A DNA stretch of 64,000 bases. Origin: Clostridium sp. DSM 17811. Its GTDB lineage: Bacteria > Bacillota > Clostridia > Clostridiales > Clostridiaceae. Within the stretch, counting starts at the first letter, position 1, and every line of letters starts with the position of its first letter. Shown here piece after piece: positions 15,863-36,892 of this stretch. The position numbers and the translations under genes are program-made. Location: assembly GCF_018861905.1 (NCBI RefSeq), contig NZ_JAHLDU010000010.1:1-64000 (forward strand). Direction: 5' to 3'. The notes under the pieces are model-generated. The model was not told the origin of the DNA, searched no databases, and saw nothing but the letters and a program-made list of their open reading frames with translations.

Positions 15863-15916
15863 TTTAACAGTGAAGATGATAATAATTCTTAAATTCACAA
15901 AAATATGGAGCGTATC

Positions 15917-21565: not shown

Positions 21566-23320
21566 ATGCTTGATTTATTAAAACAAGAAATAAAAGAGGT
21601 ATATAATATTATAATAAGTCCAATAGATGATGCATACAAAGTAATTGCTCTTAAAAATTATAAAATAAAATTAGAAAGATCAGGAAAAAAAAGTTTTGGT
21701 GATGACTATTATAAATTTATAAAAAATAATAAAGAGAAGGGTACGGTGTATACTCCAGAACCTATAACCTCTTATATGATAGAAAATACTATAAAAGCTG
21801 AGCAGATAATAAATAATCCATATATAAGAATTGTCGATCCATCCTGTGGCACAGGAAATATTTTGATTTGTTGTTTTAAATTTCTTAAAAATTTATATAA
21901 GGATAATTTGGGCTTTATTAATGAGAAAAATGGATTAAAATTAAATGTAAAAAGTATTGATGACCATATAATAAGATATAATTTGTTCGGATTTGACATT
22001 GATAATATAGCGTTAAAAATTCTTGTTATTGATTTATATGATTTAAGCAAGGGTTGCATACTTGAAAATATTTTCAATAAGGATTTTTTATTGTATGAGA
22101 ATGAATGTAAATATGATATCGTAATAGGGAATCCACCTTATGTTGGCAAAAAATCTATAGATAACGAGTATGCTTCATTTCTAAAAATAAAATATAAAAA
22201 AGTATACAGCGACAAAGGGGATTTATCATATTGTTTTTTTGAGAAAGCATTAGAGGATTTAAGTGAGGGTGGAAAGCTTACATTTATTACTTCAAGATAT
22301 TTTATAGAATCACCTAGTGGAGAAGATTTGAGGAAAGTGTTAAAGGAAGGCTACACCATAGATAAAATGATAGATTTTTATGGTATAAGACCATTTAAAA
22401 ATGTAGGGATAGATCCTTTAATTATATTTATTACAAATTATAAAACTATGGATAATAAAATTGCAATTATAAAGCCATTGGCCGTAAAAAGTAAAGAAAA
22501 AAAAGAATTTTATAATAATGTATTTTTAAAAGGTGGCAATAAATTTAACGCTTTTATGCTAAATAAAAAAGAATTAGATGATAAGGGTTGGGTTTTAGTA
22601 GATGAGAAAGTTAGAACTATTATAAAAAAAATAAAACAACAAAAGTATACTAGCCTTAGTAATATATGCAATAGTTATCAGGGAATAATAACTGGGTGTG
22701 ATAAAGCTTTTGTACTAAATAAGGATACTTCACTAAGAAAAAACATTGAAAATGATATAATAAAACCTTGGATTAAGAGTAGTTACATAGAAAAAAATAA
22801 AATTTTAAGGCAAGATAGTTATATAATATATTCAGATTTGATTTGTAATCCTAAAGAATATAGTAATGCTATAGCTTATATTGGATTACAGAGGGAAAAG
22901 CTTCTAAAAAGAAGAGAGTGTCAAAAGGGTATCAGAAAATGGTATGAACTTCAATGGGGAAGAAATCAAAGTATATTTGAAGGAGAAAAGATAGTTTTCC
23001 CATTTAAAGCCAGTAGTAACAGATTTGCTCTTGATACGGGAAGTTATTTTAGTGCAGATGTATATGCACTTACATTAAAAGAAGATGCTGCGGTTACTTA
23101 TGATTTCTTATTATACATATTAAATAGTAAAATATACGAATTCTATTTTAAGACCTTTGCGAAAAAACTTGGTGAGGATGCATATGAGTATTATCCAAAT
23201 AACTTAATGAAATTATGCATTCCAACCATGATGGAGTATAAGGGCAAAGATGAAAATTATTTATATGATTACTTTCACCTTAGTGAAGAAGAAAAAGAGA
23301 TTATACTTGGAGAAGTATAA
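21566..23320 (+). CDS. CamA-like orphan N6-adenine DNA methyltransferase
   Basis: 584-residue adenine methyltransferase. Motif I is DPSCGTGN (residues 91-98, AdoMet site) and motif IV is NPPY (189-192, catalytic). The C-terminal recognition part contains YQGIITGCDKAF (371-382), RRECQKGIRKWYELQWGR (449-466) and RFALD...FSADVYAL. These blocks closely recall CamA of Clostridioides difficile, which methylates the last A of CAAAAA and affects sporulation. This is recalled from memory, not a search. No restriction gene is adjacent, as expected for an orphan epigenetic enzyme. ATG 21566 follows GGGTGGGA. The gene ends inside a hairpin and is followed at once by a sigma-54 promoter. Confidence 0.85.
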   Translation: MLDLLKQEIKEVYNIIISPIDDAYKVIALKNYKIKLERSGKKSFGDDYYKFIKNNKEKGTVYTPEPITSYMIENTIKAEQIINNPYIRIVDPSCGTGNILICCFKFLKNLYKDNLGFINEKNGLKLNVKSIDDHIIRYNLFGFDIDNIALKILVIDLYDLSKGCILENIFNKDFLLYENECKYDIVIGNPPYVGKKSIDNEYASFLKIKYKKVYSDKGDLSYCFFEKALEDLSEGGKLTFITSRYFIESPSGEDLRKVLKEGYTIDKMIDFYGIRPFKNVGIDPLIIFITNYKTMDNKIAIIKPLAVKSKEKKEFYNNVFLKGGNKFNAFMLNKKELDDKGWVLVDEKVRTIIKKIKQQKYTSLSNICNSYQGIITGCDKAFVLNKDTSLRKNIENDIIKPWIKSSYIEKNKILRQDSYIIYSDLICNPKEYSNAIAYIGLQREKLLKRRECQKGIRKWYELQWGRNQSIFEGEKIVFPFKASSNRFALDTGSYFSADVYALTLKEDAAVTYDFLLYILNSKIYEFYFKTFAKKLGEDAYEYYPNNLMKLCIPTMMEYKGKDENYLYDYFHLSEEEKEIILGEV

Positions 23321-23328
23321 TCTCTTTT
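23293..23328 (+). terminator. Hairpin terminator overlapping the methyltransferase stop
   Basis: A perfect 16-bp stem, AAAAGAGATTATACTT with AAGTATAATCTCTTTT, and loop GGAG. The stop codon (23318-23320) is in the right arm. The T-run is only four bases and its last base is the first base of the sigma-54 promoter. Confidence 0.65.
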
Positions 23329-23343
23329 GGCATGAATATTGCT
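23328..23343 (+). promoter_or_regulatory. Sigma-54 (-24/-12) promoter of the lux-like operon
   Basis: TGGCATGAATATTGCT matches the TGGCAY-N5-TTGCW consensus with the invariant GG and GC ten bases apart. The ACP gene begins 40 bases downstream. An overlapping sigma-A-like pair (TTGGCA 23327-23332, TATAAT 23349-23354, 16-bp gap) means vegetative transcription is also possible. No activator palindrome of the type seen at 29460 or 33971 was found upstream. Confidence 0.75.
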
Positions 23344-23382
23344 TTATATATAATAAAAGATTAATATTTAGGAGGAATTATT

Positions 23383-23625
23383 ATGAGCAATTTAGAAAAA
23401 CTAAACAAGGTGTTACGTGATGTATTTGATATAAAAAAAAATGAGGATATAAATGATGATATGGGACCTGATGAGATTGAAGGTTGGGATTCTATTGGAC
23501 ATGTAGAACTTATAACTAATTTGGAAGAAGTTTTTGATATAGCTTTAAATGTGGTGGATATTTCTAGAATGTATACTATAGGTGACATTAAGAAAATAGT
23601 TGGCAAGTATGGTGTTGAGATATGA
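23383..23625 (+). CDS. Acyl carrier protein-like
   Basis: 80-residue acidic helical protein with the phosphopantetheine site GWDSIGHVELI (Ser37). It carries acyl or other carboxylate groups as thioesters. The MGPDEIEGWDS context is closer to ACPs of specialised clusters than to the fatty-acid AcpP motif (DSLD). TAGGAGGA precedes ATG. Its stop overlaps the start of the adenylating enzyme as ATGA (23622-23625), so the two are translationally coupled. It is the first gene of the operon with the LuxE and LuxC homologues and is presumably their carrier. Confidence 0.92.
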   Translation: MSNLEKLNKVLRDVFDIKKNEDINDDMGPDEIEGWDSIGHVELITNLEEVFDIALNVVDISRMYTIGDIKKIVGKYGVEI

Positions 23626-25090
23626 CCTTTACAGATTATATTTTCGAGAATTCATCAAAAATTAATAAAACAGCTGTCATATTTAAAGATGAGATTAGCT
23701 ATAAAGAAATTTATGAAAATGTAAAAAAAAAGCTTCTTTCTTAATAAACAAGAATTTATCTAAAAAGAATGCTGTACTTTTAGTTTCTGAAAATTCTAAC
23801 TTTTTCATTGAAAACTACTTTGGGATAATTAAAAGTGGAGCTATATGTGTTCCTATTAATCCAGCTTTAAGTAGTAATGAGATAAAGTATATTATTGACT
23901 CTCTAAATATTAAGGTGATTTTTACTCAAAACAAATTCAGTGAAAAAATAAGGTCACTTAATTATAAAGATGTTGAAATTTATACAGATAAAAGTGATCT
24001 TAATATAATTTGTTATGAGGAAAATAACAATACGGATAATATAAACATAAAAGAAGATGTAGCTGTAATATTGTTTACTTCTGGGTCTACAGGTAATCCT
24101 AAGGGCGTAATGCTTACCCATTATAATCTTATATACAATACAAATTCTATAATAGAATACTTGAAACTTACAAATAAAGATAGAGTGGAAACGGTACTTC
24201 CTTTTTATTATTGTTATGGTACTTCAATTTTACATACTCATTTTAGAGTAGGGGGAAGTCTTGTAATTAATAATAAATTTATGTTTCCACAAACAGTTAT
24301 TGAGGATATAAATAAGTATAATTGTACAGGGTTTTCAGGTGTTCCTAGTACTTATCAAATATTGCTTAGAATGACTGATATGAAGAATACTAAGTTTCCA
24401 ACATTAAGGTATATAACTCAAGCAGGTGGAAAGCTACCAGAGATATTTATAAAACAACTTATAGATATTTTGGGGGTTGTGGATATATTTATAATGTATG
24501 GTCAAACTGAGGCTACAGCAAGGTTATCTTATTTACCACCCTATTTAATTAAGGAAAAGATGAATTCAATAGGAAGAGGCATTAAAGGAACGCAGCTCCA
24601 AGTCTTAAATAGCGAAGGAAAGAAAGTAAAAGTTGGAGAAATAGGAGAGGTTGTAGCTCAAGGCGACAATATAATGAAGGGATACTTTAATGATAAGCAG
24701 GCAACTGACAAAGTATTAATAAAAGGTAAGTTGTATACAGGAGATGTGGCTAAGGTAGATGATGAGGGATATATATATATAGTGGCAAGGGAAAAAAATA
24801 TTATTAAAAGTGGTGGAATTAGAATAAGTCCTAAAGAAATAGAGGATGTAATATTACAAATTCCAGAAGTAGTAGAATGCGTTGTTATTGGAGTTTTAGA
24901 TGATATTTTAGGAGAGGCGGCAAAAGCCTTTGTAGTATTAGTCGCGGATAAACCATTTGTAGATTTTAAATATATTTTAGATTTTTGTAAAAAGCAATTG
25001 CCATCATATAAAACGCCAAGATATATAGAGTTTTTAAGCACTCTTCCTAAAAATTCTTCAGGTAAGGTGTTAATTAAACAACTTAAGTAA
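23622..25090 (+). pseudogene. Acyl-adenylate ligase (AMP-binding), frameshifted at A9 tract
   Basis: ANL-family acid:CoA/ACP ligase that activates a carboxylate with ATP. The N-terminal part (ATG 23622, MTFTDYIFENSSKINKTAV) runs into a stop at 23742. The family-like sequence continues in the next frame with KKKASFLINKNLSKKNAVLL and then LFTSGSTGNPKG (P-loop), YGQTEATARLSY, GDVAKVDDEGY and the C-terminal catalytic Lys in SSGKVLIKQL. One extra A in the A9 run (23723-23731) restores a single frame of about 489 residues. Everything after the shift is intact to 25090. It may be a true mutation, a homopolymer sequencing error, or a slippage-controlled gene. It sits between the ACP and luxE-like genes. 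Confidence 0.85.
23723..23731 (+). repeat. A9 homopolymer at the frameshift point
   Basis: Nine consecutive A residues in the ligase gene, exactly where the reading frame changes by one base. Such tracts promote polymerase slippage and length change. Confidence 0.9.
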
Positions 25091-25103
25091 CAATAAGAGG
25101 GTG

Positions 25104-26222
25104 ATGAAATTGGGGATTGTGGAAATTATAGATGAGCTAGTGCTTGGTGAACAGTTTAATTTAAATCAGAAAGATAAGGAAAAGCTGCTTTTAAAAACAA
25201 TATTATCTCAGCTAGATAATAATATGGAGAATATAAACATAAAATCTATGTATGAAAAATTAAGTGTAGATATAAATAGTATTAAAACATTAGAAGAGGT
25301 TCCATACATACCTGTAAATATGTTTAAATCTTTTGATCTTAGAGTTTGCGAGGTTGGGAAAGTAGCAAGAGTGTTGCTTTCTAGTGCTACAACCACAGGA
25401 ATTCCTAGTAAAATATATTTAGATAAAAAAACTTCAATAAGGCAAACACAAGGGTTAATAAGTACATTATCAAATTTTTTAGGTTCCAAAAGAAGACCAA
25501 TGCTTATCATAGATGATGAAGATAGCAACAAAAAAGGGGATAGCATGACTGCACGTGGGGCAGCGATAAGAGGAGTAAGCGCTTTTGCGAGTGAGATTTG
25601 TTATGTAATGGATAAAGAGAATGATGAACTTAGGGTAAATATAGATAGACTACGTACATTTGAGCGAAAGCATAAGGGCGAGAAAATTATAGTTTATGGA
25701 TTTACTTATATATTATGGTCTAAATTTTTAAAAGTTTTAAAACAGGAACAAATACAATTAAATATGCCAAATATGAAGCTGCTACATAGTGGTGGATGGA
25801 AAAAATTAATATCTGAAAAGGTAGAGAAAAAAGTATTTTCAGAGACTGCTGCACAGTTATTTAATACTAAAGTCTCTAATATAATAGATTTTTATGGAAT
25901 GGTGGAGCAGTTAGGAGTAGTTTTTATTGATTGTGAATATGGGTATAAACATGTCCCTAATTTTGCAGAGATTATTATAAGGGATATACAAACATTAGAA
26001 GAAGTGAAATTAGGACAAATTGGGATTATAGAGGTTATGAGTATTTTAGGTACTAGTTATCCATCACAAGCCATCCTAACTGAAGATGTTGGCAAGTTTA
26101 TAGGCATAGATGATTGCCCATGTGGTAGACATGGCAAGTATTTTAAATTTAAGTCGCGAATAGACAAAGCTGAAGTTAGAGGATGTGGAGATACTTTTGC
26201 ACAGAGAGAGGTAGGAAGATGA
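25104..26222 (+). CDS. LuxE-like acyl-protein synthetase
   Basis: About 372 residues, related to LuxE. LuxE activates a fatty acid as acyl-AMP and passes the acyl group to a Cys before reduction by LuxC. The stretch LLSSATTTGIPSKIYLDKKT (residues about 90-110) is the family's ATP loop, and IIVYGFTYILW, DFYGMVEQLGVVF and CPCGRHG are further conserved parts. ATG 25104 is two bases from AGAGGG, so the TTG at 25110 is an alternative start. It overlaps the next gene by ATGA. In light-emitting bacteria LuxE works with LuxC and LuxD; here no luxD or luciferase gene is present. Confidence 0.85.
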   Translation: MKLGIVEIIDELVLGEQFNLNQKDKEKLLLKTILSQLDNNMENINIKSMYEKLSVDINSIKTLEEVPYIPVNMFKSFDLRVCEVGKVARVLLSSATTTGIPSKIYLDKKTSIRQTQGLISTLSNFLGSKRRPMLIIDDEDSNKKGDSMTARGAAIRGVSAFASEICYVMDKENDELRVNIDRLRTFERKHKGEKIIVYGFTYILWSKFLKVLKQEQIQLNMPNMKLLHSGGWKKLISEKVEKKVFSETAAQLFNTKVSNIIDFYGMVEQLGVVFIDCEYGYKHVPNFAEIIIRDIQTLEEVKLGQIGIIEVMSILGTSYPSQAILTEDVGKFIGIDDCPCGRHGKYFKFKSRIDKAEVRGCGDTFAQREVGR

Positions 26223-27523
26223 TAAATTGTTATGAGCTAAATGGTGAATTTAATGAGAATGGTTTGAGTTTTAAAGATTTTAACGAAATGGAAACCTACT
26301 TAAATAACAATCTTTCGGAAATTCATAAAATTCCAGTAGAAGCTATAATACTTATAATTAATGAGTATAGTAAAAAAATTGCGAAAAACAAAGAAATATT
26401 AAGAATGGAAGGCGTTTCATTTTTATGTTTCTATTTGAAGAAGATAAATATTGAAAAACAGTTAAAACTTAACTTAGAAAATATCGAATACTTAAATAAA
26501 TTCGTACAGATAGATGATGAAAAATACATTAAAGCACAACCCAGAGGTATAGTATGTCATTGGATGGCTGGGAATGTGCCTACACTTGGAATTTATTCCG
26601 TTATGCAAAGCATATTATGTAAAAATGCCAATATTCTTCGAGTATCTAAGAAAAGTGTAAGTGTTGTATATAATTTATTAATAATTTTAGCAAATATAAA
26701 TGTTGAATATGAAGGGCAAACATATTCTTCAAATATTTTACTTAAGAATATTGCCCTTATTTATTTTGATAGTTTTGATAGAAATCTTAATTCTTTGATG
26801 TCCTTAAAAGCTGATGTTAGGATAGTTTGGGGAAATAAAACAGCAGTAGATATTATTTGCCTGTTGCCAAAAAAAACTACTTGTAAGGATTTGATTTTTG
26901 GCCCTAAGTATTCATTTGCTGTTTTTGATAAATCAGCAATTGAGAGTAATGATTTAGAAGAATACTTAGAGAATTTGGTTACAGATACAATTGTTTTTGG
27001 TCAAAAGGGATGTTCTTCGCCTCAAGTGTTATTTATAGAGAAAAGTAAATTACATGTAAAAGATGTAGCTCAAATGTTAAGTTTAAAGTTTGAAAAAATA
27101 ACTAAAAGATATACAAATTTAGATTTAGAGGAGGCTATTGTTGCTAAGATAATTAACAAAAGAGGAGAATATTTATTAGGCCTTGATAAGCTAGCTTATA
27201 TAAGTAAGGGGCTTAAATATACAATATTAATTGATAGTGAAATAAAGCTTGAGGAGCCAATTACGGGGCGAACTATATTTATAAAAGAGGTGGAGGATAT
27301 ATTTGATGTATGCCCTTTAATTACTAAAAATATACAAACTATAGGAATAGCTTCTAAGAATAAGGAAAAGGTTTTAGAATTTACGGATAGGGTAACAACA
27401 TTTGGAGTAGATAGAGTTGTGAAAATTGGGTACATGAACTTCTATGATTCTCCTTGGGATGGAAGCTTAATAATGAGTGAATTAGTTAGATGGTGTTCAC
27501 TTAGTATAAAGGGAATGATATAA
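26219..27523 (+). CDS. LuxC-like acyl-CoA/acyl-protein reductase
   Basis: 434-residue NADPH-dependent reductase of the LuxC family, within the aldehyde dehydrogenase superfamily. It reduces an acyl thioester to the aldehyde. Conserved parts are AQPRGIVCHWMAGNVP (nucleotide-binding region, residues about 106-121), VWGNKTAV and DTIVFGQKGCSSPQVLF with the catalytic Cys265. ATG 26219 lies in the ATGA overlap with the luxE-like stop and has GAGGTAGG upstream; the in-frame ATG at 26183 is inside the previous gene. It is the last gene of the operon. No terminator was seen before the regulator gene 145 bases downstream. Confidence 0.88.
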   Translation: MINCYELNGEFNENGLSFKDFNEMETYLNNNLSEIHKIPVEAIILIINEYSKKIAKNKEILRMEGVSFLCFYLKKINIEKQLKLNLENIEYLNKFVQIDDEKYIKAQPRGIVCHWMAGNVPTLGIYSVMQSILCKNANILRVSKKSVSVVYNLLIILANINVEYEGQTYSSNILLKNIALIYFDSFDRNLNSLMSLKADVRIVWGNKTAVDIICLLPKKTTCKDLIFGPKYSFAVFDKSAIESNDLEEYLENLVTDTIVFGQKGCSSPQVLFIEKSKLHVKDVAQMLSLKFEKITKRYTNLDLEEAIVAKIINKRGEYLLGLDKLAYISKGLKYTILIDSEIKLEEPITGRTIFIKEVEDIFDVCPLITKNIQTIGIASKNKEKVLEFTDRVTTFGVDRVVKIGYMNFYDSPWDGSLIMSELVRWCSLSIKGMI

Positions 27524-27667
27524 CAACATTAATTTTAATATGTAAGAAATAATTGTACAATTTATGAAAGCTTAATATAAGCTCACCTTTTCTGATATAA
27601 TAAAATTGAACTATGTAATGTATAATAATGCATGGTTTAATTTATTATAAATTGAGAGGTGTTTTTT

Positions 27668-29467
27668 TTGAAAGTAAAGGATATTATGACGAAAAGTAAT
27701 TTCAAACTAAAAGAAAATAATACTTTTTATGAGGCAGCGCAGTTATTTAATAATAATGAAGTAGAAGTAATACCTATATTAGATAAAAAAGAGACCTTAG
27801 TTGGCGTTATAACGAAAAATGATATAATTAATAATTTTATTAACGGTACAAGCCCTGATACATATGTAAAATACCTTTTAAGGTGTACAACAAATATTAT
27901 AAATGAAGATTCTAAAATATCAGACTGCATTGATAAAGCGGAAGGTTATATGGCAGTTACAAATTCAGATGGTAAATTTGTTGGATATTTCAATGTGAAT
28001 AATATTTATAAGCATCGGTTTGCTAATTCATTAGAAAAAATAAATGATCTTAAGCAAAGATTAAACTGCAATAATGAATGTGGCATTGGAGAGCTCAATT
28101 GCATTGAATTGGATGCAGTTATTGAAGCATCATTTGATGGTATCTATATAACCGATGGTAAGGCTAATACATTAAAGATTAATAAATCTTATGAAAACAT
28201 AACAGGGTTACAAAGAAAAGATATGATTAATAGAAATATGTTTGAACTAGAAAAAGAGGGCTATATATCTAAGTCAGCTACACTTATGGTATTAAAAAAT
28301 AGAAAATCTAATACAATTGAGCAAGAATTTAATACAGGTAAAAAGGTGCTGGTTTCAAGTAGCCCTATATTTAATGATAAAGGTAATATAAGTATGGTAG
28401 TTACAAATGTACGGGATATAACAGAACTATATGAGTTACAAGATGAGTTGGTTAAAAATATGAAATTAACAGAAAAATACCATTCTGAGATAGAAGCTAT
28501 GCGAATTCAATATCTAAATTTAGCTGACATAATTGCTAAGGATACAGTGATGATTGATTTGCTTGAGGTGGCTAAAAGGGTAGCTAGTGTGGATACTACT
28601 GTTTTAATATTAGGTGAAACTGGAGTTGGGAAAGAGGAAATAGCTAAATTTGTATATAAAAATAGTTTGAGAAAGAGTAAAAACTTTATTAAAATTAACT
28701 GTGGAGCAATTCCTAGTAATCTTATAGAATCTGAGCTTTTTGGGTATGTCAAAGGGGCATTTACAGGAGCTAATAAGGAAGGGAAAATGGGACTTTTTGA
28801 AGTGGCAGATGGAGGTACAGTTTTTTTAGATGAAATTGGAGAACTTCCTTTAGATATACAGGTTAAACTACTTAACGTGCTTCAGGAGGGCGAAGTTGAA
28901 AGAGTTGGAGCAGTAAAATCAATAAAGATTGACGTAAGAGTATTAGCTGCTACAAATAGAGATTTAGAAGAAATGACTAAGGATAAGACTTTTAGAGCTG
29001 ATTTATACTATCGTTTAAACGTTGTCCCGCTTGTCGTACCACCACTAAGAGAAAGGAGAGGTGATATTATTCCTTTAGTCCAATACTTCTTATCTAAATT
29101 AAATAAGAAATATAAGTTTAAGAAAACATTTACTATTGAGGCATTGAATACACTTTACAATTACAGTTGGCCTGGCAATGTTCGCGAACTTAAAAATATT
29201 GTAGAGAGGGTTATAGTAATGAGTAGCAGTGATAAAATATTCAAAAACGATCTGTCAATTAAAAATTTTCCTGATTCTATTGAAACAAATATTAATGGTG
29301 ATGATATTTGTAATTTAAAAGAAGCAGTAGAAAAGGTAGAAGCTAAACTTATTAATAATGCTTTTAATAATGCAGGCAATGTTCGAGATGCTGCTAAAAT
29401 GCTTGGCATTAATTCTTCTACTTTTTTTAGAAAGCGTAAAAGATATTTAGAAAAAGATATGTTTTAA
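27668..29467 (+). CDS. CBS-PAS-AAA+ sigma-54-dependent activator
   Basis: About 599 residues. Two N-terminal CBS repeats (residues about 1-115) suggest adenosyl-ligand sensing. A PAS domain (about 145-255) follows, then the AAA+ domain with Walker A GETGVGKE (316-323), GAFTGA sigma-54 contact loop (363-368), VFLDEIGELP and a C-terminal Fis-type helix-turn-helix with AAKMLGINSSTFFRKRKRY. It opens sigma-54 promoters by ATP hydrolysis while bound upstream. The start is probably TTG 27668 after GAGAGGTG; GTG 27659 overlaps that site. It lies directly before the abf operon, whose two upstream palindrome pairs are the likely targets, and downstream of the lux-like operon. Confidence 0.92.
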   Translation: MKVKDIMTKSNFKLKENNTFYEAAQLFNNNEVEVIPILDKKETLVGVITKNDIINNFINGTSPDTYVKYLLRCTTNIINEDSKISDCIDKAEGYMAVTNSDGKFVGYFNVNNIYKHRFANSLEKINDLKQRLNCNNECGIGELNCIELDAVIEASFDGIYITDGKANTLKINKSYENITGLQRKDMINRNMFELEKEGYISKSATLMVLKNRKSNTIEQEFNTGKKVLVSSSPIFNDKGNISMVVTNVRDITELYELQDELVKNMKLTEKYHSEIEAMRIQYLNLADIIAKDTVMIDLLEVAKRVASVDTTVLILGETGVGKEEIAKFVYKNSLRKSKNFIKINCGAIPSNLIESELFGYVKGAFTGANKEGKMGLFEVADGGTVFLDEIGELPLDIQVKLLNVLQEGEVERVGAVKSIKIDVRVLAATNRDLEEMTKDKTFRADLYYRLNVVPLVVPPLRERRGDIIPLVQYFLSKLNKKYKFKKTFTIEALNTLYNYSWPGNVRELKNIVERVIVMSSSDKIFKNDLSIKNFPDSIETNINGDDICNLKEAVEKVEAKLINNAFNNAGNVRDAAKMLGINSSTFFRKRKRYLEKDMF

Positions 29468-29477: not shown

Positions 29478-29561
29478 TGTACCATAAATGCAACAATAAT
29501 AAATATAATGTGCCATGGCATAAACTTTGGGAGCGTTTACAATAATTCCAATTAAAATGTT

Positions 29562-29591
29562 AAGATGTGTTTCGTTTATGAGACACATCTT
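29562..29591. promoter_or_regulatory. Upstream activator palindrome 2 of abfD, also terminator-like
   Basis: Two 13-base arms around TTTA, with the core TGTTTCG-TTTA-TGAGACA at 29568-29585 and one mismatch overall. It is followed by ATTTTTTAT, so the same sequence may also terminate the activator transcript. The spacing from palindrome 1 is 108 bases. Confidence 0.6.
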
Positions 29592-29706
29592 ATTTTTTAT
29601 AAATATAATTATAGGAATAATCATAACAAATAGTTAAAATAGCATATTAAATTATCAAAATGTGCTTAAATCATACTATTAAAAAAAAATCATATAACCA
29701 TAACTT

Positions 29707-29722
29707 TGGCACGGGTATTGCT
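29707..29722 (+). promoter_or_regulatory. Sigma-54 promoter of the abfD operon
   Basis: TGGCACGGGTATTGCT matches the -24/-12 consensus TGGCAC-N5-TTGCW exactly. abfD starts 62 bases downstream. Confidence 0.88.
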
Positions 29723-29784: not shown

Positions 29785-31239
29785 ATGGGATTAATGACAG
29801 GAGAACAATACGTAGAAAGTCTTAGAAAATTGAATTTGAAAGTTTATATGTTTGGAGAAAAAGTAGATAACGTAGTAGACAACCCAATAATTCGTCCTTC
29901 AATGAACTCAGTAAAAATGACTTATGATTTGGCACAATTGCCTGAATATGAGGATTTGATGACTACTACTTCGAGTATTACAGGAAAAAAGATTAATAGA
30001 TTTTCTACTCTTCATCAAAGTACTGACGACTTAATTAAAAAAGTTAAAATGCAAAGACTGTGTGGACAAAAAACTGCTTCATGTTTCCAAAGATGTGTTG
30101 GAATGGATGCTTTTAACTCTGAATATAGTACTACTTTTGAACTTGATAAAGCTCATGGAACAAAGTATCATGAAAATTTTGTAAAGTTTTTAACATATGT
30201 TCAGGAAAATGATTTAATAGTAGATGGAGCAATGACGGATCCTAAGGGTGATAGAGGTTTATCACCATCAAAACAAGAAGATCCAGATATGTATCTTAGA
30301 GTAGTTGAAAGAAGACCAGATGGTATTGTTGTTCGTGGTGCAAAGGCTCATCAAACTGGTATATGTAATTCACATGAAGTTTTAGTTATGCCAACGCAGG
30401 CTATGAGACCAGAGGATAAGGACTATGCAGTATCATTTTCAGTTCCAACAGATACAAAAGGTATTTTTATGATTCTTGGGCGTCAATCTTGTGATACAAG
30501 GAAAAGTGAAGAAGGTGCAGACATTGATGTTGGAAATTACAATTATGGTGGAGTAGAAGCATTAACCATATTTGACAATGTTTTTGTACCAAATGAGAGA
30601 ATATTCTTAAATGGAGAAACTGAATTTGCAGGTATGCTTGTTGAAAGATTTGCAGGATATCATAGACAAAGCTATGGTGGATGTAAAGTTGGCGTAGGAG
30701 ATGTGCTTATTGGTGCTGCTGCTGTAGCTGCAGAGTATAATGGAACTGCCAAAGTAACACATATCAAAGATAAATTAATAGAAATGACCCACTTAAATGA
30801 GACACTATACGCTTGTGGAATTGCATGTTCTGCAGAAGGTCATAAAACTGAATCAGGTAACTTTATAATAGACTTATTACTTGCCAATGTCTGTAAACAA
30901 AATGTTACAAGATTCCCATATGAAATAGTAAGACTTGCAGAGGATATAGCAGGGGGACTTATGGTAACTATGCCTTCAGACAAAGATTTTAAAGATCCAA
31001 TTGTTGGACCTTATTGTGAAAAATATTTAAAAGGTGTTGCATCAGTTTCAACTGAAAATAGAATGAGAATATTAAGATTAATAGAAAACATGTCGCTTGG
31101 AACTGCTGCAGTTGGTTATAGAACGGAATCAATGCATGGTGCAGGTTCACCACAGGCTCAAAGAATAATGATAGCAAGACAAGGGAATTTACCTCGTAAA
31201 AAAGCCTTAGCAAAAGTTATTGCTAGGATAAAAGAATAA
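29785..31239 (+). CDS. abfD: 4-hydroxybutyryl-CoA dehydratase / vinylacetyl-CoA isomerase
   Basis: Dehydrates 4-hydroxybutyryl-CoA to crotonyl-CoA by a ketyl-radical mechanism, using FAD and a [4Fe-4S] cluster. The 484 residues align without gaps near the active site to the Clostridium aminobutyricum enzyme as I recall it. Cluster ligands Cys100 and Cys104 (TASCFQRCVGMD), His293 and Cys300 (GYHRQSYGGC) correspond to Cys99, Cys103, His292 and Cys299. It is the first gene after a consensus sigma-54 promoter and is followed by a hairpin that may reduce expression of the genes behind it. AAAGGAATG lies upstream of ATG 29785; an in-frame ATG at 29794 is an alternative. Confidence 0.97.
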   Translation: MGLMTGEQYVESLRKLNLKVYMFGEKVDNVVDNPIIRPSMNSVKMTYDLAQLPEYEDLMTTTSSITGKKINRFSTLHQSTDDLIKKVKMQRLCGQKTASCFQRCVGMDAFNSEYSTTFELDKAHGTKYHENFVKFLTYVQENDLIVDGAMTDPKGDRGLSPSKQEDPDMYLRVVERRPDGIVVRGAKAHQTGICNSHEVLVMPTQAMRPEDKDYAVSFSVPTDTKGIFMILGRQSCDTRKSEEGADIDVGNYNYGGVEALTIFDNVFVPNERIFLNGETEFAGMLVERFAGYHRQSYGGCKVGVGDVLIGAAAVAAEYNGTAKVTHIKDKLIEMTHLNETLYACGIACSAEGHKTESGNFIIDLLLANVCKQNVTRFPYEIVRLAEDIAGGLMVTMPSDKDFKDPIVGPYCEKYLKGVASVSTENRMRILRLIENMSLGTAAVGYRTESMHGAGSPQAQRIMIARQGNLPRKKALAKVIARIKE

Positions 31240-31249
31240 ATTTATAAAC

Positions 31250-31280
31250 ATGTGTGGGAGGAACTCTCGCACATATTTTT
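31250..31280 (+). terminator. Terminator/attenuator after abfD
   Basis: ATGTGTGGGAG pairs with CTCTCGCACAT (11 bp, two G-U pairs) around a GAA loop, followed by ATTTTT. Genes of the same operon follow, so it probably sets a high abfD to downstream ratio. Confidence 0.75.
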
Positions 31281-31298
31281 AAAGAATGGAGTGACGCA

Positions 31299-31622
31299 AT
31301 GGTTTCTAAAGACAAAGTGGGCGCTAATGAAGTTATGTATTCAGAGATTGAAAAAATTCTTGAGTTTAATGTTAGACCCAAGTTAGCAGAGCATTATGGA
31401 AATATCGAACTTATTAGTTACAATGATGGGATAGTTGAAGTTAAGCTTATGGGGCAATGCAAAGGATGTCTTTCTGCAAAATATACAGTTGAGGACGTAG
31501 TTGAAGTTGCACTTAAAAAAAATATACCATGTATTAAAAAGGTAATTTTAAGAAATGAGGTAAGTGAAGAGCTATTAAATCAGGCAAGGAAATTTCTAAA
31601 TGAACGCAATAGAGGGAAATAA
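31299..31622 (+). CDS. NifU C-terminal-domain-like Fe-S protein
   Basis: 107-residue protein with the NifU-C/Nfu signature: NVRPKLAEHYGNIELISY then VKLMGQCKGCLSAKYTVEDVVE, whose CxxC pair binds or transfers a [4Fe-4S] cluster. ATG 31299 with GGAG at 31288-31291 is preferred over an earlier in-frame ATG that lies inside the terminator hairpin. It stands between abfD and a Cys-rich small protein. AbfD needs an unusual [4Fe-4S] cluster with one His ligand, so a dedicated cluster carrier for AbfD is a reasonable inference. Its stop overlaps the next ATG (TAATG). Confidence 0.8.
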   Translation: MVSKDKVGANEVMYSEIEKILEFNVRPKLAEHYGNIELISYNDGIVEVKLMGQCKGCLSAKYTVEDVVEVALKKNIPCIKKVILRNEVSEELLNQARKFLNERNRGK

Positions 31623-31915
31623 TGAAAATTGGAATTAAATATTGTGGAGGATGTAATCCAACCTATGAGAGAATAGATGTTGTACTAAGAATAAAGAAAA
31701 AGATTGGTATAAGTCATAATATTGAAACGATAAAACAAGGAATTTTTTACGACATAGTGATTATTTTATGCGGATGTAGTCGTGCTTGTGCGAGTCATAA
31801 GAATATTGAAGTTAAATACGAAAAAATATGTATAACTAGTGGAAACGACGATAGTAAGTTATTGAAGGTTATAGATAAAATAAATGTTTTGTCTAGGGGG
31901 GAGTGGGACATATGA
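31622..31915 (+). CDS. Small Cys-rich protein of the abf operon, unrecognised
   Basis: 97 residues. I do not recognise a named family. The N-terminus MKIGIKYCGGCNPTYER has a CxxC pair and the middle has ILCGCSRACASH, with three more Cys in CxCSxxCA spacing, suggesting metal or Fe-S binding. Its start overlaps the NifU-like stop by one base and its own stop overlaps the CoA-transferase start (ATGA), so it is translated as part of the operon. Conserved coupling on both sides argues for a real gene with a role linked to AbfD or its cluster. Confidence 0.75.
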   Translation: MKIGIKYCGGCNPTYERIDVVLRIKKKIGISHNIETIKQGIFYDIVIILCGCSRACASHKNIEVKYEKICITSGNDDSKLLKVIDKINVLSRGEWDI

Positions 31916-33210
31916 ATTTAGAAAAAATTTACAAATCAAAAATTATTACTGCAAAGCAAGCAGCAGTGAAAATAAAGTCTGGCGACAGGGTAGTAATAGG
32001 CCATGCAGTTGGTGAACCAACTGCAGTTATAGATGCTATGGTAGCAAACTGTAATGATTATGAAAATGTTGAAATCGTTCACATGGTAGCGATGAGTAAA
32101 AGTGAATACGCACAACCAGGTATGGAAAGCCATTTTAGGCATAACTCACTATTTGTAGGCGGAAGTACAAGGGAGGCAGTAAGTTCAGGAAGAGCAGATT
32201 TTACACCTTGCTATTTCAGCGAAGTTCCGAGTCTTTTTAAAGAAGAGTTACCAATAGATGTAGCACTTATTCAAGTAACGTCGCCCGATGAACACGGTTT
32301 TTGTAGTTATGGTGTATCTAATGATTATACAAAGCCAGCAGCAGAATGTGCAAAACTAGTAATTGCAGAAGTAAACAATAAAATGCCAAGAACAATGGGT
32401 GATTGCTTTATACACGTTTCTAATATAGATTACATTGTAGAATTTGATCATCAAGTAATTGAGCTAAATCCTCCTAAAATAGGAGATATCGAGAAAGCTA
32501 TTGGTGAACATTGCGCATCTTTAGTTGAGGATGGATCTACACTTCAACTTGGAATAGGTGCTATACCAGATGCAGTATTGTTATTTTTAAAACAAAAGAA
32601 GAATCTTGGTATTCATTCAGAGATGATTTCAGATGGAGTTGTGGAATTAGTTGAAGCAGGTGTAATTACTGGTAAATCTAAAACTATTCATAGTGGAAAA
32701 ATTATTGTTACATTTTTGATGGGAACTCAAAGACTATATGATTTTGTTAATAATAATCCAATGGTTGAAATGTATCCTGTAGATTATGTAAATGACCCTA
32801 TTGTTATTATGAAAAATACAAAAATGATATCAATAAATTCTTGTGTGCAAGTGGATTTAATGGGTCAAGTAGCTTCAGAAAGTATTGGTTTAAAACAGAT
32901 AAGTGGTGTTGGCGGTCAGGTGGATTTTGTACGAGGTTCAAATATGTGTCCCGATGGTAAATCTATTATGGCTATGTCATCTACAGCAGCTAGAGGGAAA
33001 ATCTCTAAAATTGTACCATTCTTAGACGAGGGGTCAGCAGTTACCACTGGTAGGAATGATGTGAATTATATAGTAACAGAATATGGAATAGCAAAGCTTA
33101 AGGGCAAGAATCTAAAAAATAGAGGTAGAGCATTAATCAATATTTCTCATCCAAACTTTAGACCTTCACTCATTAAAGAATGGGAAAAAAGATTCAATGC
33201 TAAATTCTAA
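31912..33210 (+). CDS. abfT: 4-hydroxybutyrate CoA-transferase
   Basis: Moves CoA from acetyl-CoA (or butyryl-CoA) to 4-hydroxybutyrate, giving the AbfD substrate. The 432 residues have the family I/cat2 pattern: IVHMVAMS, FTPCYFSEVP, QLGIGAIPDAVL, HSEMISDGVVEL with the likely catalytic Glu237 (Glu238 in the C. aminobutyricum enzyme), and GVGGQVDFVRG near the C-terminus. ATG 31912 overlaps the previous stop and follows a G-rich ribosome site; an ATG at 31903 is in frame but lacks spacing. A close paralogue is encoded at 41102. Confidence 0.92.
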   Translation: MNLEKIYKSKIITAKQAAVKIKSGDRVVIGHAVGEPTAVIDAMVANCNDYENVEIVHMVAMSKSEYAQPGMESHFRHNSLFVGGSTREAVSSGRADFTPCYFSEVPSLFKEELPIDVALIQVTSPDEHGFCSYGVSNDYTKPAAECAKLVIAEVNNKMPRTMGDCFIHVSNIDYIVEFDHQVIELNPPKIGDIEKAIGEHCASLVEDGSTLQLGIGAIPDAVLLFLKQKKNLGIHSEMISDGVVELVEAGVITGKSKTIHSGKIIVTFLMGTQRLYDFVNNNPMVEMYPVDYVNDPIVIMKNTKMISINSCVQVDLMGQVASESIGLKQISGVGGQVDFVRGSNMCPDGKSIMAMSSTAARGKISKIVPFLDEGSAVTTGRNDVNYIVTEYGIAKLKGKNLKNRGRALINISHPNFRPSLIKEWEKRFNAKF

Positions 33211-33309: not shown

Positions 33310-33753
33310 ATAAGTTTAAAAAGAGAAGATGGTAAAGGTGGACCTATTGTAGGCGGAACTTTATGGCCACATATTCAATGGGGATTTTCACAATCAGCAT
33401 TTGGAGAACTCTGGAGTAAATGGACGTTCTGGTCAATAGGTTTTCCGCCGGCTATTATGTTTATAAAAGCTCTTCCAATGGTTTTTTCAGCCTATATCAT
33501 ACTATTTGGTGAGATGATTCAGGCACAAGCATTTCTAGAAGATGCAGCACCATCAAGGCCAGATGAATTAATAGATTATAACCCTAATAGATCTCACATG
33601 ATATTTGGATTACGTAATATGATAATGTCAATAACCGGACCTGATTTAACAATGTGTGGGCCGCTTTGGGCAGCAATGCAAGTTGTTGTATGTGATAGAT
33701 ATAAACATGGTAGAAAATCAATGGATTCAATAAATGGACACATATATATTTGA
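33310..33753 (+). pseudogene. Truncated multi-pass membrane protein (transporter-like), ATA start position
   Basis: An open frame runs from 33286 to a stop at 33751-33753. A strong AGGGGGGG (33295-33302) sits seven bases before an ATA codon, and the translated sequence from there looks genuine: SLKREDGKGGPIVGGTLW, then hydrophobic helices, SRPDELIDYNPNRSHMIFGL and MCGPLWAAMQVVVCDRYKHG. The first ATG is only at 33457. I do not recognise the family, but it resembles an internal part of a membrane permease that stops abruptly after MDSING. Missing start and early stop suggest a decayed gene, perhaps once the substrate transporter of the abf operon. Confidence 0.6.
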
Positions 33754-34219: not shown

Positions 34220-34235
34220 TGGCATAAGTATTGCT
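34220..34235 (+). promoter_or_regulatory. Sigma-54 promoter of the 4hbD operon
   Basis: TGGCATAAGTATTGCT fits TGGCAY-N5-TTGCW. The flanks TAACTT before and ACATATGTAAGT after it resemble those of the abfD promoter, so the two regions share ancestry. Confidence 0.85.
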
Positions 34236-34356: not shown

Positions 34357-35475
34357 ATGAAAAACTTTCAATTAGTACCTCAGATTCATAGTTTTAATAA
34401 TTTTAAAGATTTTGCAGATGAGTTTAAAATTGGTGAAGGTGACTTAGTATTAACTCAAGAATTTATTTATGAACCATTTATGAAATATTTGAATTTAAAA
34501 GCAGACTTTATTTTTCAAGAAAAATATGGTGTTGGTGAACCTTCTGACGAGATGATTAACAACATTATTGCAGCGATGCCTAATAAAAACATCAAAAGAA
34601 TTGTTGGTATAGGGGGCGGAACTGTTATAGATATTTCTAAATTAATGGTTTTTAAGGATGTAAAAAATTGTCTTGATTTGTTCGAGAAAAAAGTACCTTT
34701 TATAAGGGATAAGGAATTAATAATTATCCCTACGACTTGCGGAACTGGGAGCGAAGTAACTAATATCTCAATTGCAGAAATAAAATCAAAACATACAAAA
34801 ATGGGACTTGCGACTGATGAGTTATTTGCAAACCAAGCAGTGCTTATTCCAGAGTTAATTAAGGGATTGCCTTTTAAATTTTTTGTTGCTAGCTCCATAG
34901 ATGCATTAATTCATGCTATTGAATCTTTTGTATCTCCTAAGGCTAGTGTATACACAGAGATATTTTCAGTTAAAGCTATAGAAATGATTATGAAGGGTTA
35001 CATGGAAATTATAGAAAAAGGTGAGGATCATCGTCAGAATCTATTAAAGGAATTTTCAACCGCCAGTAACTATGCTGGAATTGCTTTTGCAAATGCTGGA
35101 GTTGGAGCAGTTCATGCTATGTCTTATCCATTAGGTGGAGTTTATCATGTAGCACACGGAGAGGCAAACTATGAACTATTTACTGAAGTTTTTAAAATGT
35201 ACAGTAAAAAGAATCCAAATGGAAAGATAAAGGAAATAAATACTCTTTTGGCAGATGTATTAGGTCTTAGTCATGGTGAGGATGTTTATAAAGAAATTGA
35301 AAATGTGTTAAATAAATTATTGATGAAAAAGCCATTAAAAGAATTTGGAATGAAGAAAGAAGAAATAGAATTGTTTACTGATAGCGTTATAGAGTCGCAA
35401 CAAAGATTGTTAGTAAATAATTATGTAGCATTATCAAGAGAAGAAATGATTGAGATATATACAAATTTATATTAG
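34357..35475 (+). CDS. 4hbD: 4-hydroxybutyrate dehydrogenase (iron-dependent ADH family)
   Basis: Reduces succinate semialdehyde to 4-hydroxybutyrate with NADH. 372 residues, the usual family length. The NAD-binding GIGGGTVIDISKL, IIPTTCGTGSEVTN, and the metal ligands in ASSIDALIHAIESF (Asp, His) and VHAMSYPLGGVYHVAHGEAN (His, His) are all present. ATG 34357 follows GGTAGGATG-type sequence. It lies 122 bases after a sigma-54 promoter, with a CoA-transferase remnant in the leader. The permease and gabT follow in the same direction, in line with a GABA degradation route. Confidence 0.95.
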   Translation: MKNFQLVPQIHSFNNFKDFADEFKIGEGDLVLTQEFIYEPFMKYLNLKADFIFQEKYGVGEPSDEMINNIIAAMPNKNIKRIVGIGGGTVIDISKLMVFKDVKNCLDLFEKKVPFIRDKELIIIPTTCGTGSEVTNISIAEIKSKHTKMGLATDELFANQAVLIPELIKGLPFKFFVASSIDALIHAIESFVSPKASVYTEIFSVKAIEMIMKGYMEIIEKGEDHRQNLLKEFSTASNYAGIAFANAGVGAVHAMSYPLGGVYHVAHGEANYELFTEVFKMYSKKNPNGKIKEINTLLADVLGLSHGEDVYKEIENVLNKLLMKKPLKEFGMKKEEIELFTDSVIESQQRLLVNNYVALSREEMIEIYTNLY

Positions 35476-35503: not shown

Positions 35504-36892
35504 ATGGAAAATCAAGGTGGTCAGCAGGTATTTAAACGTACTTTAAAATTACATCACTTAACTTTATTTGGGCTGGCATATTTGGCGCCAATGATTGTAT
35601 ATGGAATATATGGTGTTATTTCTGAAACAACTCATGGCGTCGAAGCAGGAGCTTATCTTGCATCCTTAGTGGCTATGTTTTTTACCGCTCTCAGTTATTG
35701 CCATATGGTAAAGGCCTTTCCTGTAGCGGGATCAGCTTATACATATACTGGAAAAGCAATTAGCCCGCATCTGGGATTCATGGTAGGGTGGGCAGTTATG
35801 CTTGATTATGTCTTCATCCCAATGGCAATCTGGCTAATTGGTGCTTCTTATTTTAACGCTGCTTTCCCAAGTATTCCATCATGGGCGTTTGTTTTAGGAT
35901 TTATTTTCGTCACTACCTCAATCAACATCATCGGTATCAAGATTGGCGCACAAGTCAATGTTGTCATGGTATTACTGCAACTTCTAGTAATTGGCGCTTT
36001 TATTGCTTTTAGCGTTAAAGCTGTTATGCATGGTATTGGTACAGGAACTATGTTATCGATAAGTCCTTTTTACAACAAACATGTTCCGTTTGGCTTTGTG
36101 ATGGCCGGTGCATCTATTGCTTGTTATTCATTTCTTGGATTTGACGCCGTTTCTACTTTCGTTGAGGAAGCAGTGGATCCATTAAAAAATATTCCACGTG
36201 CTATCATACTTACAACAGTGATTGGTGGGTTGATTTTCATAGTGGCAACTTATACTACCCATATGGCTCACCCAGGTTATGTTTATAAAGATGCAGGTAA
36301 TGCTGCATTTGAGATTGCTAAACAAGTTGCACCACCTATATTCGGTACCATTTTCCTAATCGGCATGATTATCGCGCAGTTTGCCTCGGGTATTTCAGCC
36401 CAAGCAAGTGGTGCCCGACTTATGTATGCAATGGGGAGGGATAACGTATTACCTAAAAAAATATTTGGAGTACTGAGCAACAAATTTAATACTCCAATTA
36501 ATAATATCATCATCACAGGAGTGATTGCATTGCTTGCTCTTAAACTTACTGTTGCCACATCTACATCCTTTATTAACTTTGGAGCTTTCACGGCATTTGC
36601 ATTTGTGAATATTTCAGTGATTGTCCATTATTTCATCAAGGAAAAGAGACGGTCATTTAAAGATACTATTCTGTTTTTGATTTTTCCAATGATTGGTGCA
36701 AGTTTTTGTTTTTTGCTTCTTACGAACTTAGACAAAGCTGCTTTGACTTTAGGATGCATCTGGGCCACATGCGGTTTTATCTATTTAATATTTCTTACTA
36801 AAGGGTTTAAAGTAAGCCCACCAGAGATGGCAGCTGGCAGCAATGATATAATAACGACTAATGTAGAAAGTAAAATAAAAATAGAACAATAG
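35504..36892 (+). CDS. APC-superfamily amino acid/amine permease (candidate GABA importer)
   Basis: 462-residue transporter with about 12 helices. The first helix has LTLFGLAYLAPMIVYGIYG, and SFLGFDAVSTFVEEAVDPLK marks helix 6 of the APC fold. It resembles putrescine/amine importers of the PuuP type. Between 4hbD and gabT, GABA is the likely substrate, but specificity is inferred from place only. The gene uses clearly more GC-rich codons (ATC, GTC, GGC) than its neighbours, which suggests recent acquisition. Its ribosome site AGGAGGTAG precedes ATG 35504. Confidence 0.88.
   Translation: MENQGGQQVFKRTLKLHHLTLFGLAYLAPMIVYGIYGVISETTHGVEAGAYLASLVAMFFTALSYCHMVKAFPVAGSAYTYTGKAISPHLGFMVGWAVMLDYVFIPMAIWLIGASYFNAAFPSIPSWAFVLGFIFVTTSINIIGIKIGAQVNVVMVLLQLLVIGAFIAFSVKAVMHGIGTGTMLSISPFYNKHVPFGFVMAGASIACYSFLGFDAVSTFVEEAVDPLKNIPRAIILTTVIGGLIFIVATYTTHMAHPGYVYKDAGNAAFEIAKQVAPPIFGTIFLIGMIIAQFASGISAQASGARLMYAMGRDNVLPKKIFGVLSNKFNTPINNIIITGVIALLALKLTVATSTSFINFGAFTAFAFVNISVIVHYFIKEKRRSFKDTILFLIFPMIGASFCFLLLTNLDKAALTLGCIWATCGFIYLIFLTKGFKVSPPEMAAGSNDIITTNVESKIKIEQ

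What the first reader, a model, noticed from the sequence alone, without database searches (positions are those of the whole stretch)
23328..27523. Lux-like aldehyde-forming operon without luciferase in a Clostridium
ACP, acyl-adenylating enzyme, LuxE-like synthetase and LuxC-like reductase are consecutive, two junctions being ATGA overlaps. In luminous bacteria LuxC and LuxE (with LuxD) make the fatty aldehyde for luciferase; no luxA, luxB or luxD is here. The set should convert a carboxylic acid to an aldehyde via an ACP thioester. What the aldehyde is for (lipid, signal, electron sink, surface modification) is unknown. The dedicated ACP and ligase make it different from plain luxCE. Best candidate for an undescribed system in this window.
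Basis: partly seen in the sequence, partly recalled or inferred. Interest (0 to 1): 0.8.

Follow-up and report, generated by a model that had tools for sequence, protein, structure and literature searches.

The report
Aldehyde operon of 4-hydroxybutyrate fermenters
A Clostridium of a cold-adapted group carries a four-gene operon that probably turns an acid into an aldehyde; it keeps company with the genes for fermenting 4-hydroxybutyrate, and its second gene seems readable in full only if the cell slips on a run of nine A's that related species have kept.

Summary
The four genes are real: ACP, acyl-adenylating ligase (ANL), LuxE and LuxC homologues, with two ATGA overlaps. The set is not an orphan. 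Of 206 family genomes, 41 have the same LuxC (50% identity or more), and 40 of these also have 4-hydroxybutyryl-CoA dehydratase (AbfD), on the same contig in 38. A sigma-54 activator lies in all 41 loci; a -24/-12 site precedes ACP in 39 of 41 and AbfD in 34 of 35. A divergent copy of the module became linked to AbfD apparently separately. Nie et al. 2019 already list acp-caiC-luxEC with abfD as the XanR regulon ('Butyrate/Butanol synthesis'), in the passages seen without a reaction; similar cassettes sit in surface-glycan islands. I read it as an ATP-driven acid-to-aldehyde reductase for a C4 acid of the 4-hydroxybutyrate pathway; the acid is unproven.
New here: in 8 of 12 loci of this genus, this one included, the ligase frame is interrupted at the same run of exactly nine A's. 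Both pieces are under purifying selection, and in 7 of 8 the second frame has no early start codon. This points to conserved transcriptional slippage or ribosomal frameshifting in a metabolic enzyme gene.

The parts
23293..23328 (.). 16-bp perfect inverted repeat at the end of the upstream DNA-methylase gene
   Evidence: terminator-like on the - strand
23328..23343 (+). -24/-12 (sigma-54) promoter-like site, 11 of 11 scored positions, 55 nt before the ACP start
   Evidence: a sigma-70-like match (11 of 12) overlaps it
23383..23625 (+). acyl carrier protein (80 aa; WDS motif, by which it was found in all 41 loci)
23622..23744 (+). first frame of the acyl-adenylating ligase (40 codons, then stop); overlaps ACP by ATGA
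23723..23731 (+). run of nine A at which the ligase frame changes; same length and phase in 8 of 8 interrupted loci
23717..25090 (+). second frame of the ligase (open 457 codons; AMP-binding and AMP-binding_C); first ATG/GTG/TTG is GTG at 23915
25101..26222 (+). LuxE-like acyl-protein synthetase (373 aa)
26219..27523 (+). LuxC-like acyl reductase (434 aa from ATG 26219)
27659..29467 (+). sigma-54-dependent activator (CBS, PAS, AAA+, Fis-type HTH), candidate XanR by context
29707..29722 (+). -24/-12 site 78 nt before AbfD
29785..31239 (+). 4-hydroxybutyryl-CoA dehydratase AbfD (PDB 1U8V, E 2.6e-245)
31254..31622 (+). NifU-like domain protein
31622..31915 (+). small Cys-rich protein, no Pfam family
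31903..33210 (+). CoA-transferase (AbfT/Cat2-like, by context)
34220..34235 (+). -24/-12 site 137 nt before the iron-containing dehydrogenase
34357..35475 (+). iron-containing alcohol dehydrogenase, candidate 4-hydroxybutyrate dehydrogenase (no NCBIfam cut-off reached)
35504..36892 (+). amino-acid permease (candidate GABA importer by context)
37008..38372 (+). 4-aminobutyrate transaminase (TIGR00700, 526 bits, cut-off 507)

Best explanation
The operon encodes an ATP-driven carboxylic-acid reductase: ANL and LuxE activate an acid as acyl-adenylate, the acyl group passes over ACP and/or the LuxE cysteine to the LuxC cysteine, and LuxC reduces it with NAD(P)H to an aldehyde. It belongs to the sigma-54 regulon of 4-hydroxybutyrate (4HB) fermentation, so the acid is most likely a C4 acid of that pathway. 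My first choice is succinate to succinate semialdehyde, then 4HB by the iron dehydrogenase; next come 4HB or a crotonate/butyrate-type acid as an electron sink. Shown by computation: the gene set, the aligned cysteines, co-occurrence and linkage with AbfD, the shared promoter type, and a second lineage linked to AbfD. Inferred: the reaction, the acid, the order of carriers. In 8 of the 12 loci of this genus the full-length ligase would have to be made by slippage (transcriptional, or -1 ribosomal) on a conserved run of nine A's.
For: 40 of 41 genomes with this LuxC also have AbfD; table 40/1/8/157 of 206, Fisher p 1.9e-33 with no correction for kinship. On the same contig in 38 of 40. A sigma-54 activator of one similarity cluster lies in 41 of 41 loci. 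A -24/-12 site lies within 200 nt before ACP in 39 of 41 loci against 545 of 20,000 random 200-nt stretches, and within 400 nt before AbfD in 35 of 36 called AbfD ORFs (34 of 35 in the clade, plus L088). The own genome has a sigma-54 gene. A second, divergent LuxE/LuxC/ANL lineage is beside AbfD in 3 genomes of 3 families (L088, L153, L155; ACP seen in the first two); on the LuxE tree the AbfD label needs at least two changes, most simply two gains (0% of 200 bootstrap trees with one). Cysteines align with 7XC6. Frame change: 8 of 41 loci, all in this genus; nine A's in 8 of 8; dN/dS 0.11 in the second frame right after the run, 0.98 if read in the first frame.
Against: 14 of 41 genomes also have a SucD-like CoA-acylating dehydrogenase (60% or more, full length; one more in fragments), so a succinate-to-semialdehyde step would be redundant there. 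13 of 41 lack a homologue of 50% or more of the window's iron dehydrogenase. 8 AbfD genomes lack this LuxC, and 1 genome has LuxC without AbfD. Two loci (L041, L061) have no ACP promoter site, and a sigma-70-like match overlaps the site in the window. A glycosyltransferase and a MurJ gene lie 6 to 8 kb upstream in the window and recur in 6 and 4 of the 41 loci, all of this genus, so a glycan role is not excluded. Nearest solved ligases are of mixed specificity (oxalate, fatty-acyl/feruloyl, succinylbenzoate, malonyl). No expression data were seen.
Confidence: 0.5

Rival explanations
1. The module makes a hydroxyacyl-ACP for a cell-surface glycan: LuxE/LuxC reduce a dicarboxylic acid to the semialdehyde, an alcohol dehydrogenase makes the hydroxy acid, and ANL/ACP activate it for an acyltransferase, as proposed for tetronate in Vibrio cholerae O1 (pathway order partly recalled). 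Its place beside AbfD would be a shared metabolite supply.
For: Same gene set in flagellar glycan islands (PMC7874193, PMC4875605). [quoted passage not shown] Relatives in Asgard archaea and other MAGs have ANL, Fe-ADH-like protein, LuxE and LuxC, with GNAT domains in L118, L122 and L124, a PIG-L deacetylase in L118 and NeuB in L124. Clostridial sets L148 and L151 lie with a family 2 glycosyltransferase and a DegT aminotransferase, and L090 with flagellin. Glycosyltransferase and MurJ at 14951-17470 in the window.
Against: The gene clusters that recur across genera beside the operon are the activator, AbfD, CoA-transferase and NifU-like protein; glycosyltransferase and MurJ recur in this genus only. 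Not every neighbouring cluster was annotated.
Confidence: 0.2
2. Electron sink: butyrate, crotonate or a hydroxybutyrate is reduced to the aldehyde and then by alcohol dehydrogenases to butanol, crotyl alcohol or a butanediol.
For: Nie 2019 label 'Butyrate/Butanol synthesis'. Directly downstream of LuxC lie a thiolase in L051 and an acyl-CoA dehydrogenase in L052 (families tested) and a similar thiolase in L049 (by eye). MaoC-type hydratase cluster in 12 of 41 loci, and a hydratase-type domain fused to the small Cys-rich protein in L088, L153 and L155. The module is present with several input routes, which fits a step on a shared C4 intermediate.
Against: 26 of the 41 genomes also hold AdhE-sized matches (open frames of about 860-900 aa) that could reduce butyryl-CoA without ATP; a dedicated ACP and two ATP-using enzymes are costly for a bulk sink.
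Confidence: 0.2
3. The ligase gene is simply broken in these species (a decaying gene or a sequencing error in the A-run), and LuxE alone activates the acid.
For: First frame stops at codon 41 in 8 loci. LuxE keeps adenylation-type motifs (naming of motifs recalled). Homopolymer errors occur with some sequencing methods (recalled).
Against: The same run of exactly nine A's in 8 of 8 loci, 3 of them from assemblies of 2 to 4 contigs. dN/dS in the second frame 0.11-0.16, like LuxE and LuxC (0.16, 0.15). One origin is not ruled out by the tree.
Confidence: 0.1

Closest known systems
XanR (sigma-54) regulon of Clostridium, Nie et al. 2019 (PMC6615313, Table 1)
   Same: Two operons abfD-nifU-hyp-ach-golB and acp-caiC-luxEC listed under one activator, and the sigma-54 consensus TTGGCATNNNNNTTGCT (passages read).
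   Different: In the passages seen there is only the table entry with a pathway label; no reaction for acp-caiC-luxEC and no frame change. That the window's activator is XanR is inferred from context; its binding motif was not tested.
Aeromonas group II and enterobacterial flagellar glycan islands (PMC7874193, PMC4875605)
   Same: ACP, AMP-dependent synthetase or CoA ligase, LuxE and LuxC (passages).
   Different: They have FabG and glycan genes; here AbfD, CoA-transferase and sigma-54 sites.
Vibrio cholerae O1 rfbKLMN tetronate genes (Morona 1995, title seen in a reference list; gene roles recalled)
   Same: ACP, ligase, iron alcohol dehydrogenase and a LuxE/LuxC-like enzyme acting on a C4 acid.
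   Different: O-antigen context; not compared by sequence here.
LuxCDE fatty acid reductase of luminous bacteria (PDB 7XC6)
   Same: LuxC and LuxE profiles match the chains, Cys positions aligned.
   Different: No luciferase family found in the genome; scores far below the NCBIfam equivalog cut-offs (73.6 of 550; 97.3 of 750); extra ACP and ANL.
Conserved nine-A slippage genes (Baranov 2005, PMC1088944, passages)
   Same: A run of nine A's of conserved length in homologues, the criterion stated there for purposeful transcriptional slippage.
   Different: The cases in the passages seen are IS elements and one candidate gene of Staphylococcus; here an enzyme gene of a Clostridium group.

Membership tests
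XanR/sigma-54 regulon | Gene sets abfD-nifU-hyp-ach and acp-caiC-luxEC | tested here: met
XanR/sigma-54 regulon | -24/-12 promoters before both operons | tested here: met
   window sites 11 of 11 before both; 39 of 41 loci for ACP, 35 of 36 called AbfD ORFs
XanR/sigma-54 regulon | Upstream activating sequence bound by XanR | not tested
   motif not available to me
Luminous LuxCDE fatty acid reductase | LuxC and LuxE domains with catalytic Cys | tested here: met
   (catalytic role of the Cys recalled)
Luminous LuxCDE fatty acid reductase | Scores of the LuxC and LuxE equivalog models | tested here: not met
   97.3 of 750 and 73.6 of 550 bits
Luminous LuxCDE fatty acid reductase | Luciferase (luxAB) in the genome | tested here: not met
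   PF00296: 0 hits, 10 of 14 controls ring
Luminous LuxCDE fatty acid reductase | LuxD transferase | tested here: inconclusive
   0 hits, but no control rings
Surface-glycan ACP-ligase-LuxE-LuxC cassette | Gene set | tested here: met
Surface-glycan ACP-ligase-LuxE-LuxC cassette | Glycan genes conserved beside the operon | tested here: inconclusive
   across genera the recurring neighbours are 4HB genes; a glycosyltransferase and MurJ recur in 6 and 4 of the 12 loci of this genus, 6-8 kb upstream in the window
4HB-CoA dehydratase pathway (AbfD) | AbfD, CoA-transferase and a candidate 4HB dehydrogenase in one cluster | tested here: met
   substrate of the dehydrogenase and transferase inferred
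Programmed slippage / frameshifting | Conserved slippery run with conserved downstream frame | tested here: met
Programmed slippage / frameshifting | Stimulating RNA structure | tested here: not met
   80 nt downstream, 4 of 8 loci folded, z 0.06, -1.30, 0.91, -0.29; transcriptional slippage would not need it
Programmed slippage / frameshifting | Slipped transcript or fusion peptide observed | not testable with these tools
   no RNA or peptide data

The most novel reading that the evidence does not exclude
An ACP-dependent, LuxE/LuxC-type carboxylic-acid reductase works as a dedicated branch of 4-hydroxybutyrate fermentation in clostridia, linked to AbfD twice in evolution. In one cold-adapted genus its ligase is produced, in most species seen, only through a conserved nine-A slippage site, which would set a low ligase-to-ACP ratio.
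Probability: 0.4. Interest if true: 0.75.

Novelty: new variant of a known kind. Interest (0 to 1): 0.58.

Why it matters
To my knowledge (recalled) most LuxC/LuxE homologues outside luminous bacteria have no assigned reaction. Tying one set, by linkage, shared promoters and a second lineage, to 4-hydroxybutyrate metabolism cuts the candidate acids to a few testable C4 compounds and could reveal an ATP-driven acid reductase in anaerobes, among them C. tyrobutyricum and C. carboxidivorans. The conserved nine-A site would be a case of slippage kept by selection in a metabolic enzyme gene; annotation pipelines may well call such a gene broken.

Tried and rejected
Simple replacement of Cat1/SucD by the operon: rejected as a general rule, because a SucD-like enzyme is present in 14 of 41 genomes with the operon.

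Plain lux operon without luciferase: rejected on equivalog scores and genome search.

Stem-loop stimulated frameshift: no support in the 4 of 8 loci folded. A separately started downstream protein: unlikely, as 7 of 8 interrupted loci have no ATG/GTG/TTG in the second frame before nt 293 (codon 98) of the gene; L033 has none in the 110 codons scanned. L039 is the exception, with TTG at nt 158 and GTG at nt 227.

Substrate from ligase relatives: nearest solved ligases are mixed, so no acid could be read off. Structure prediction was not run.

Rows left out: the tree used the 12 loci of this genus plus L042 and L045; one search used 31 rows, 14 of them from the 41-locus clade; one search used 26 rows, 9 of them from the clade, with labels 'AbfD' and 'glycan' set by me from neighbours (L147, on a 6-kb contig, was called glycan; L149 and L154 were left out). 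Alignments A1 and A2 used 13 and 14 chosen sequences. Of the matches, 60 regions were fetched: 40 of the clade (the 41st locus is the window) and 20 of the lower-identity ones.

Literature, judged from listings unless passages are named: '4-hydroxybutyryl-CoA' with 'luxE' gave 1 paper, a gas-fermentation review; 'XanR/abfD/Clostridium' gave Nie 2019 first of 36, 10 listed; the rows listed show no title or abstract start that describes the operon's reaction or the frame change. PMC13317340 on clostridial flagellar glycans has no luxC or luxE in its main text; PMC3711429 on frame transitions was searched for a few words only. The library holds open-licence PMC papers only; supplements were not read.

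Full report
What is there. The window is on contig 10 of a 5.19 Mb genome. Four genes run in one direction: ACP 23383-23625, a ligase of the ANL superfamily from 23622, LuxE 25101-26222 and LuxC 26219-27523. ACP/ligase and LuxE/LuxC overlap as ATGA. No luciferase-family protein was found in the genome.

Company it keeps. LuxC of the window matched 65 of 206 family genomes; in 41 the identity is 50% or more. I fetched 40 of these loci besides the window. All 41 have ligase, LuxE and LuxC in order, and ACP was found in all 41 when searched by its motif (33 as a called ORF). In the same stretches (up to 20 kb, some cut by contig ends; 38 kb for the window), a sigma-54 activator cluster is in 41, AbfD in 35, CoA-transferase in 32, a NifU-like protein in 31 and a small Cys-rich protein in 21. 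Searched in whole genomes, AbfD is in 48 of 206; both are in 40, LuxC alone in 1 (G082, 450 contigs), AbfD alone in 8, neither in 157 (Fisher p 1.9e-33, uncorrected for kinship). In 38 of the 40 they are on one contig; in G133 and G135 they are about 27 and 20 kb apart and in the rest within about 10 kb (read). AbfD of the window is close to the GABA-pathway dehydratase 1U8V (E 2.6e-245). Downstream follow an iron-containing dehydrogenase, an amino-acid permease and a GABA transaminase above its curated cut-off.

Shared control. Sites matching GG-N10-GC with 9 or more of 11 scored positions lie within 200 nt before ACP in 39 of 41 loci, against 545 of 20,000 random stretches of the same loci. 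Within 400 nt they lie before 35 of 36 called AbfD ORFs (34 of 35 in the clade, plus L088), before the window's iron dehydrogenase, and before none of 42 activator genes. A sigma-54 gene is in the genome. A sigma-70-like match of 11 of 12 overlaps the ACP site in this AT-rich stretch, so the promoter type rests on conservation, not on the single site.

A second lineage. In a class-wide draw of 391 genomes, LuxE relatives (E 1e-50 or better) are in 15, of which 6 are family members. Of the other 9, two (L153, L155) have LuxE, LuxC and ligase beside AbfD, CoA-transferase and the Cys-rich gene (no ACP detected in L155). Six (G281, G355, G377, G479, G506, G522) lie beside genes of sugar or surface type judged mostly by eye, tested by Pfam in L148 (family 2 glycosyltransferase, transketolase) and L151 (DegT aminotransferase); G522 is a 6-kb contig. 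One (L154) is cut at a contig end. Within the family, L088 has a divergent set beside AbfD and L090 one near flagellin. On the LuxE tree L088, L153 and L155 group together (98/97) among the glycan-type sets, away from the clade rows. The AbfD label needs at least two changes by well-supported branches and no bootstrap tree of 200 has one. Most simply these are two gains; one loss and one regain is possible under another root. Asgard archaeal sets (L117-L120; LuxE 54-59% by best hit) fall with the clostridial clade; all four have a match to the Fe-ADH cluster or domain and 3 of 4 a MaoC-type protein, with no AbfD in the stretches held.

Prior knowledge. Nie et al. 2019 list the activator XanR with targets abfD-nifU-hyp-ach-golB and acp-caiC-luxEC and the label 'Butyrate/Butanol synthesis' (passages of PMC6615313). 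No further text on the operon was in the passages seen. Aeromonas and enterobacterial flagellar islands hold ACP, ligase, LuxE and LuxC (passages).

Which acid. The module occurs with different input genes: GABA transaminase cluster in 4 of 41 loci (window among them), a SucD-like enzyme in 11 loci and 14 genomes (60% or more, full length), an NCS2-like permease in 13 loci. A full-length homologue of 50% or more of the window's iron dehydrogenase is in 27 of 41 genomes, partial in 1, and missing in 13. A step common to all types should act on a shared C4 compound. The parallel with tetronate synthesis (C4 dicarboxylate to semialdehyde to hydroxy acid; partly recalled) makes succinate to semialdehyde to 4HB attractive, but the SucD and dehydrogenase counts speak against it as a universal rule. 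I therefore claim a C4 acid of the 4HB pathway, not one acid. The Cys of LuxC (265 of the window protein) and the C-terminal Cys of LuxE (362) align with Cys in 7XC6.

The interrupted ligase. In 8 of 12 loci of this genus (window, L031-L036, L039) the ligase frame stops at codon 41; it is uninterrupted in the other 33 of the 41 loci. In all 8 the break lies at a run of exactly nine A's in the same phase, inside the short overlap of the two frames. Variable columns fall 15/5/20 by codon position (33 codons) before the run in the first frame, and 18/6/42 in the 61 codons after it in the second frame. Pooled dN/dS is 0.19 before, 0.11 just after and 0.16 for the rest, against 0.16 and 0.15 for LuxE and LuxC and 0.16 for the 4 uninterrupted ligases of the genus; the 61 codons read in the first frame give 0.98 (pairs pooled, not independent). 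In the second frame the first start codon is at nt 293 in window, L031, L032 and L036, at nt 335 in L034 and L035, not found in L033, and at nt 158 in L039. So these 61 codons are under selection as protein but in 7 of 8 loci cannot be reached from a common start codon of their own frame. Runs of nine or more A or T inside ORFs of 150 aa or more are rare: 15 in 668 kb, the break sites not counted; three of them are in ligase genes of other species at other places. One origin of the interruption is not ruled out (2 changes in the tree, 1 in 42% of bootstrap trees). Baranov et al. state that a nine-A run of conserved length in homologues is very likely used for purposeful slippage (passage of PMC1088944). 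No stimulating structure was found in the 4 of 8 loci folded, which leans to transcriptional slippage. The two frames were not joined.

Verdict. The operon is a listed member of a sigma-54 regulon without an assigned reaction in what I saw, of a kind also found in glycan loci. What this adds is the strength of the tie to 4-hydroxybutyrate metabolism, the second lineage with the same tie, the kinship with Asgard sets, and the conserved nine-A site in the ligase gene.

Noticed in passing
window 33457-33753: 98-aa ORF resembling part of the NCS2-like permease that follows the CoA-transferase in other loci (cluster c9); looks like a remnant here (by eye).
   Followed up: partly
window 21566-23320: Eco57I/TaqI-type adenine DNA methyltransferase (PADLOC MTase_II, 351 bits), upstream of the operon in all 12 loci of this genus (cluster c11).
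   Followed up: partly
window 31622-31915; L088 12670-13437; L153 11068-11826; L155 13702-14451: Small Cys-rich protein (CGGCNP motif) without Pfam family between NifU-like protein and CoA-transferase; in L088, L153 and L155 its motif heads a longer protein with a hydratase-type domain (MaoC/FabA-like). Function unknown.
   Followed up: partly
window 23433-23441: A second run of nine A's inside the ACP gene, in frame and found only in the window among 41 ACP genes.
   Followed up: yes
L117-L120: Asgard archaeal MAGs carry ligase, Fe-ADH-like, LuxE and LuxC sets related to the clostridial one (ACP seen in L118 and L119 only); worth a transfer analysis.
   Followed up: partly
L145-L146, L149-L150: Two genomes of one family (G281, G355) hold two LuxE copies each in one locus, with SDR-like and transketolase-like genes (by eye).
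   Followed up: no
window 29561-29592: Hairpin with T-run after the activator gene, separating it from AbfD.
   Followed up: no
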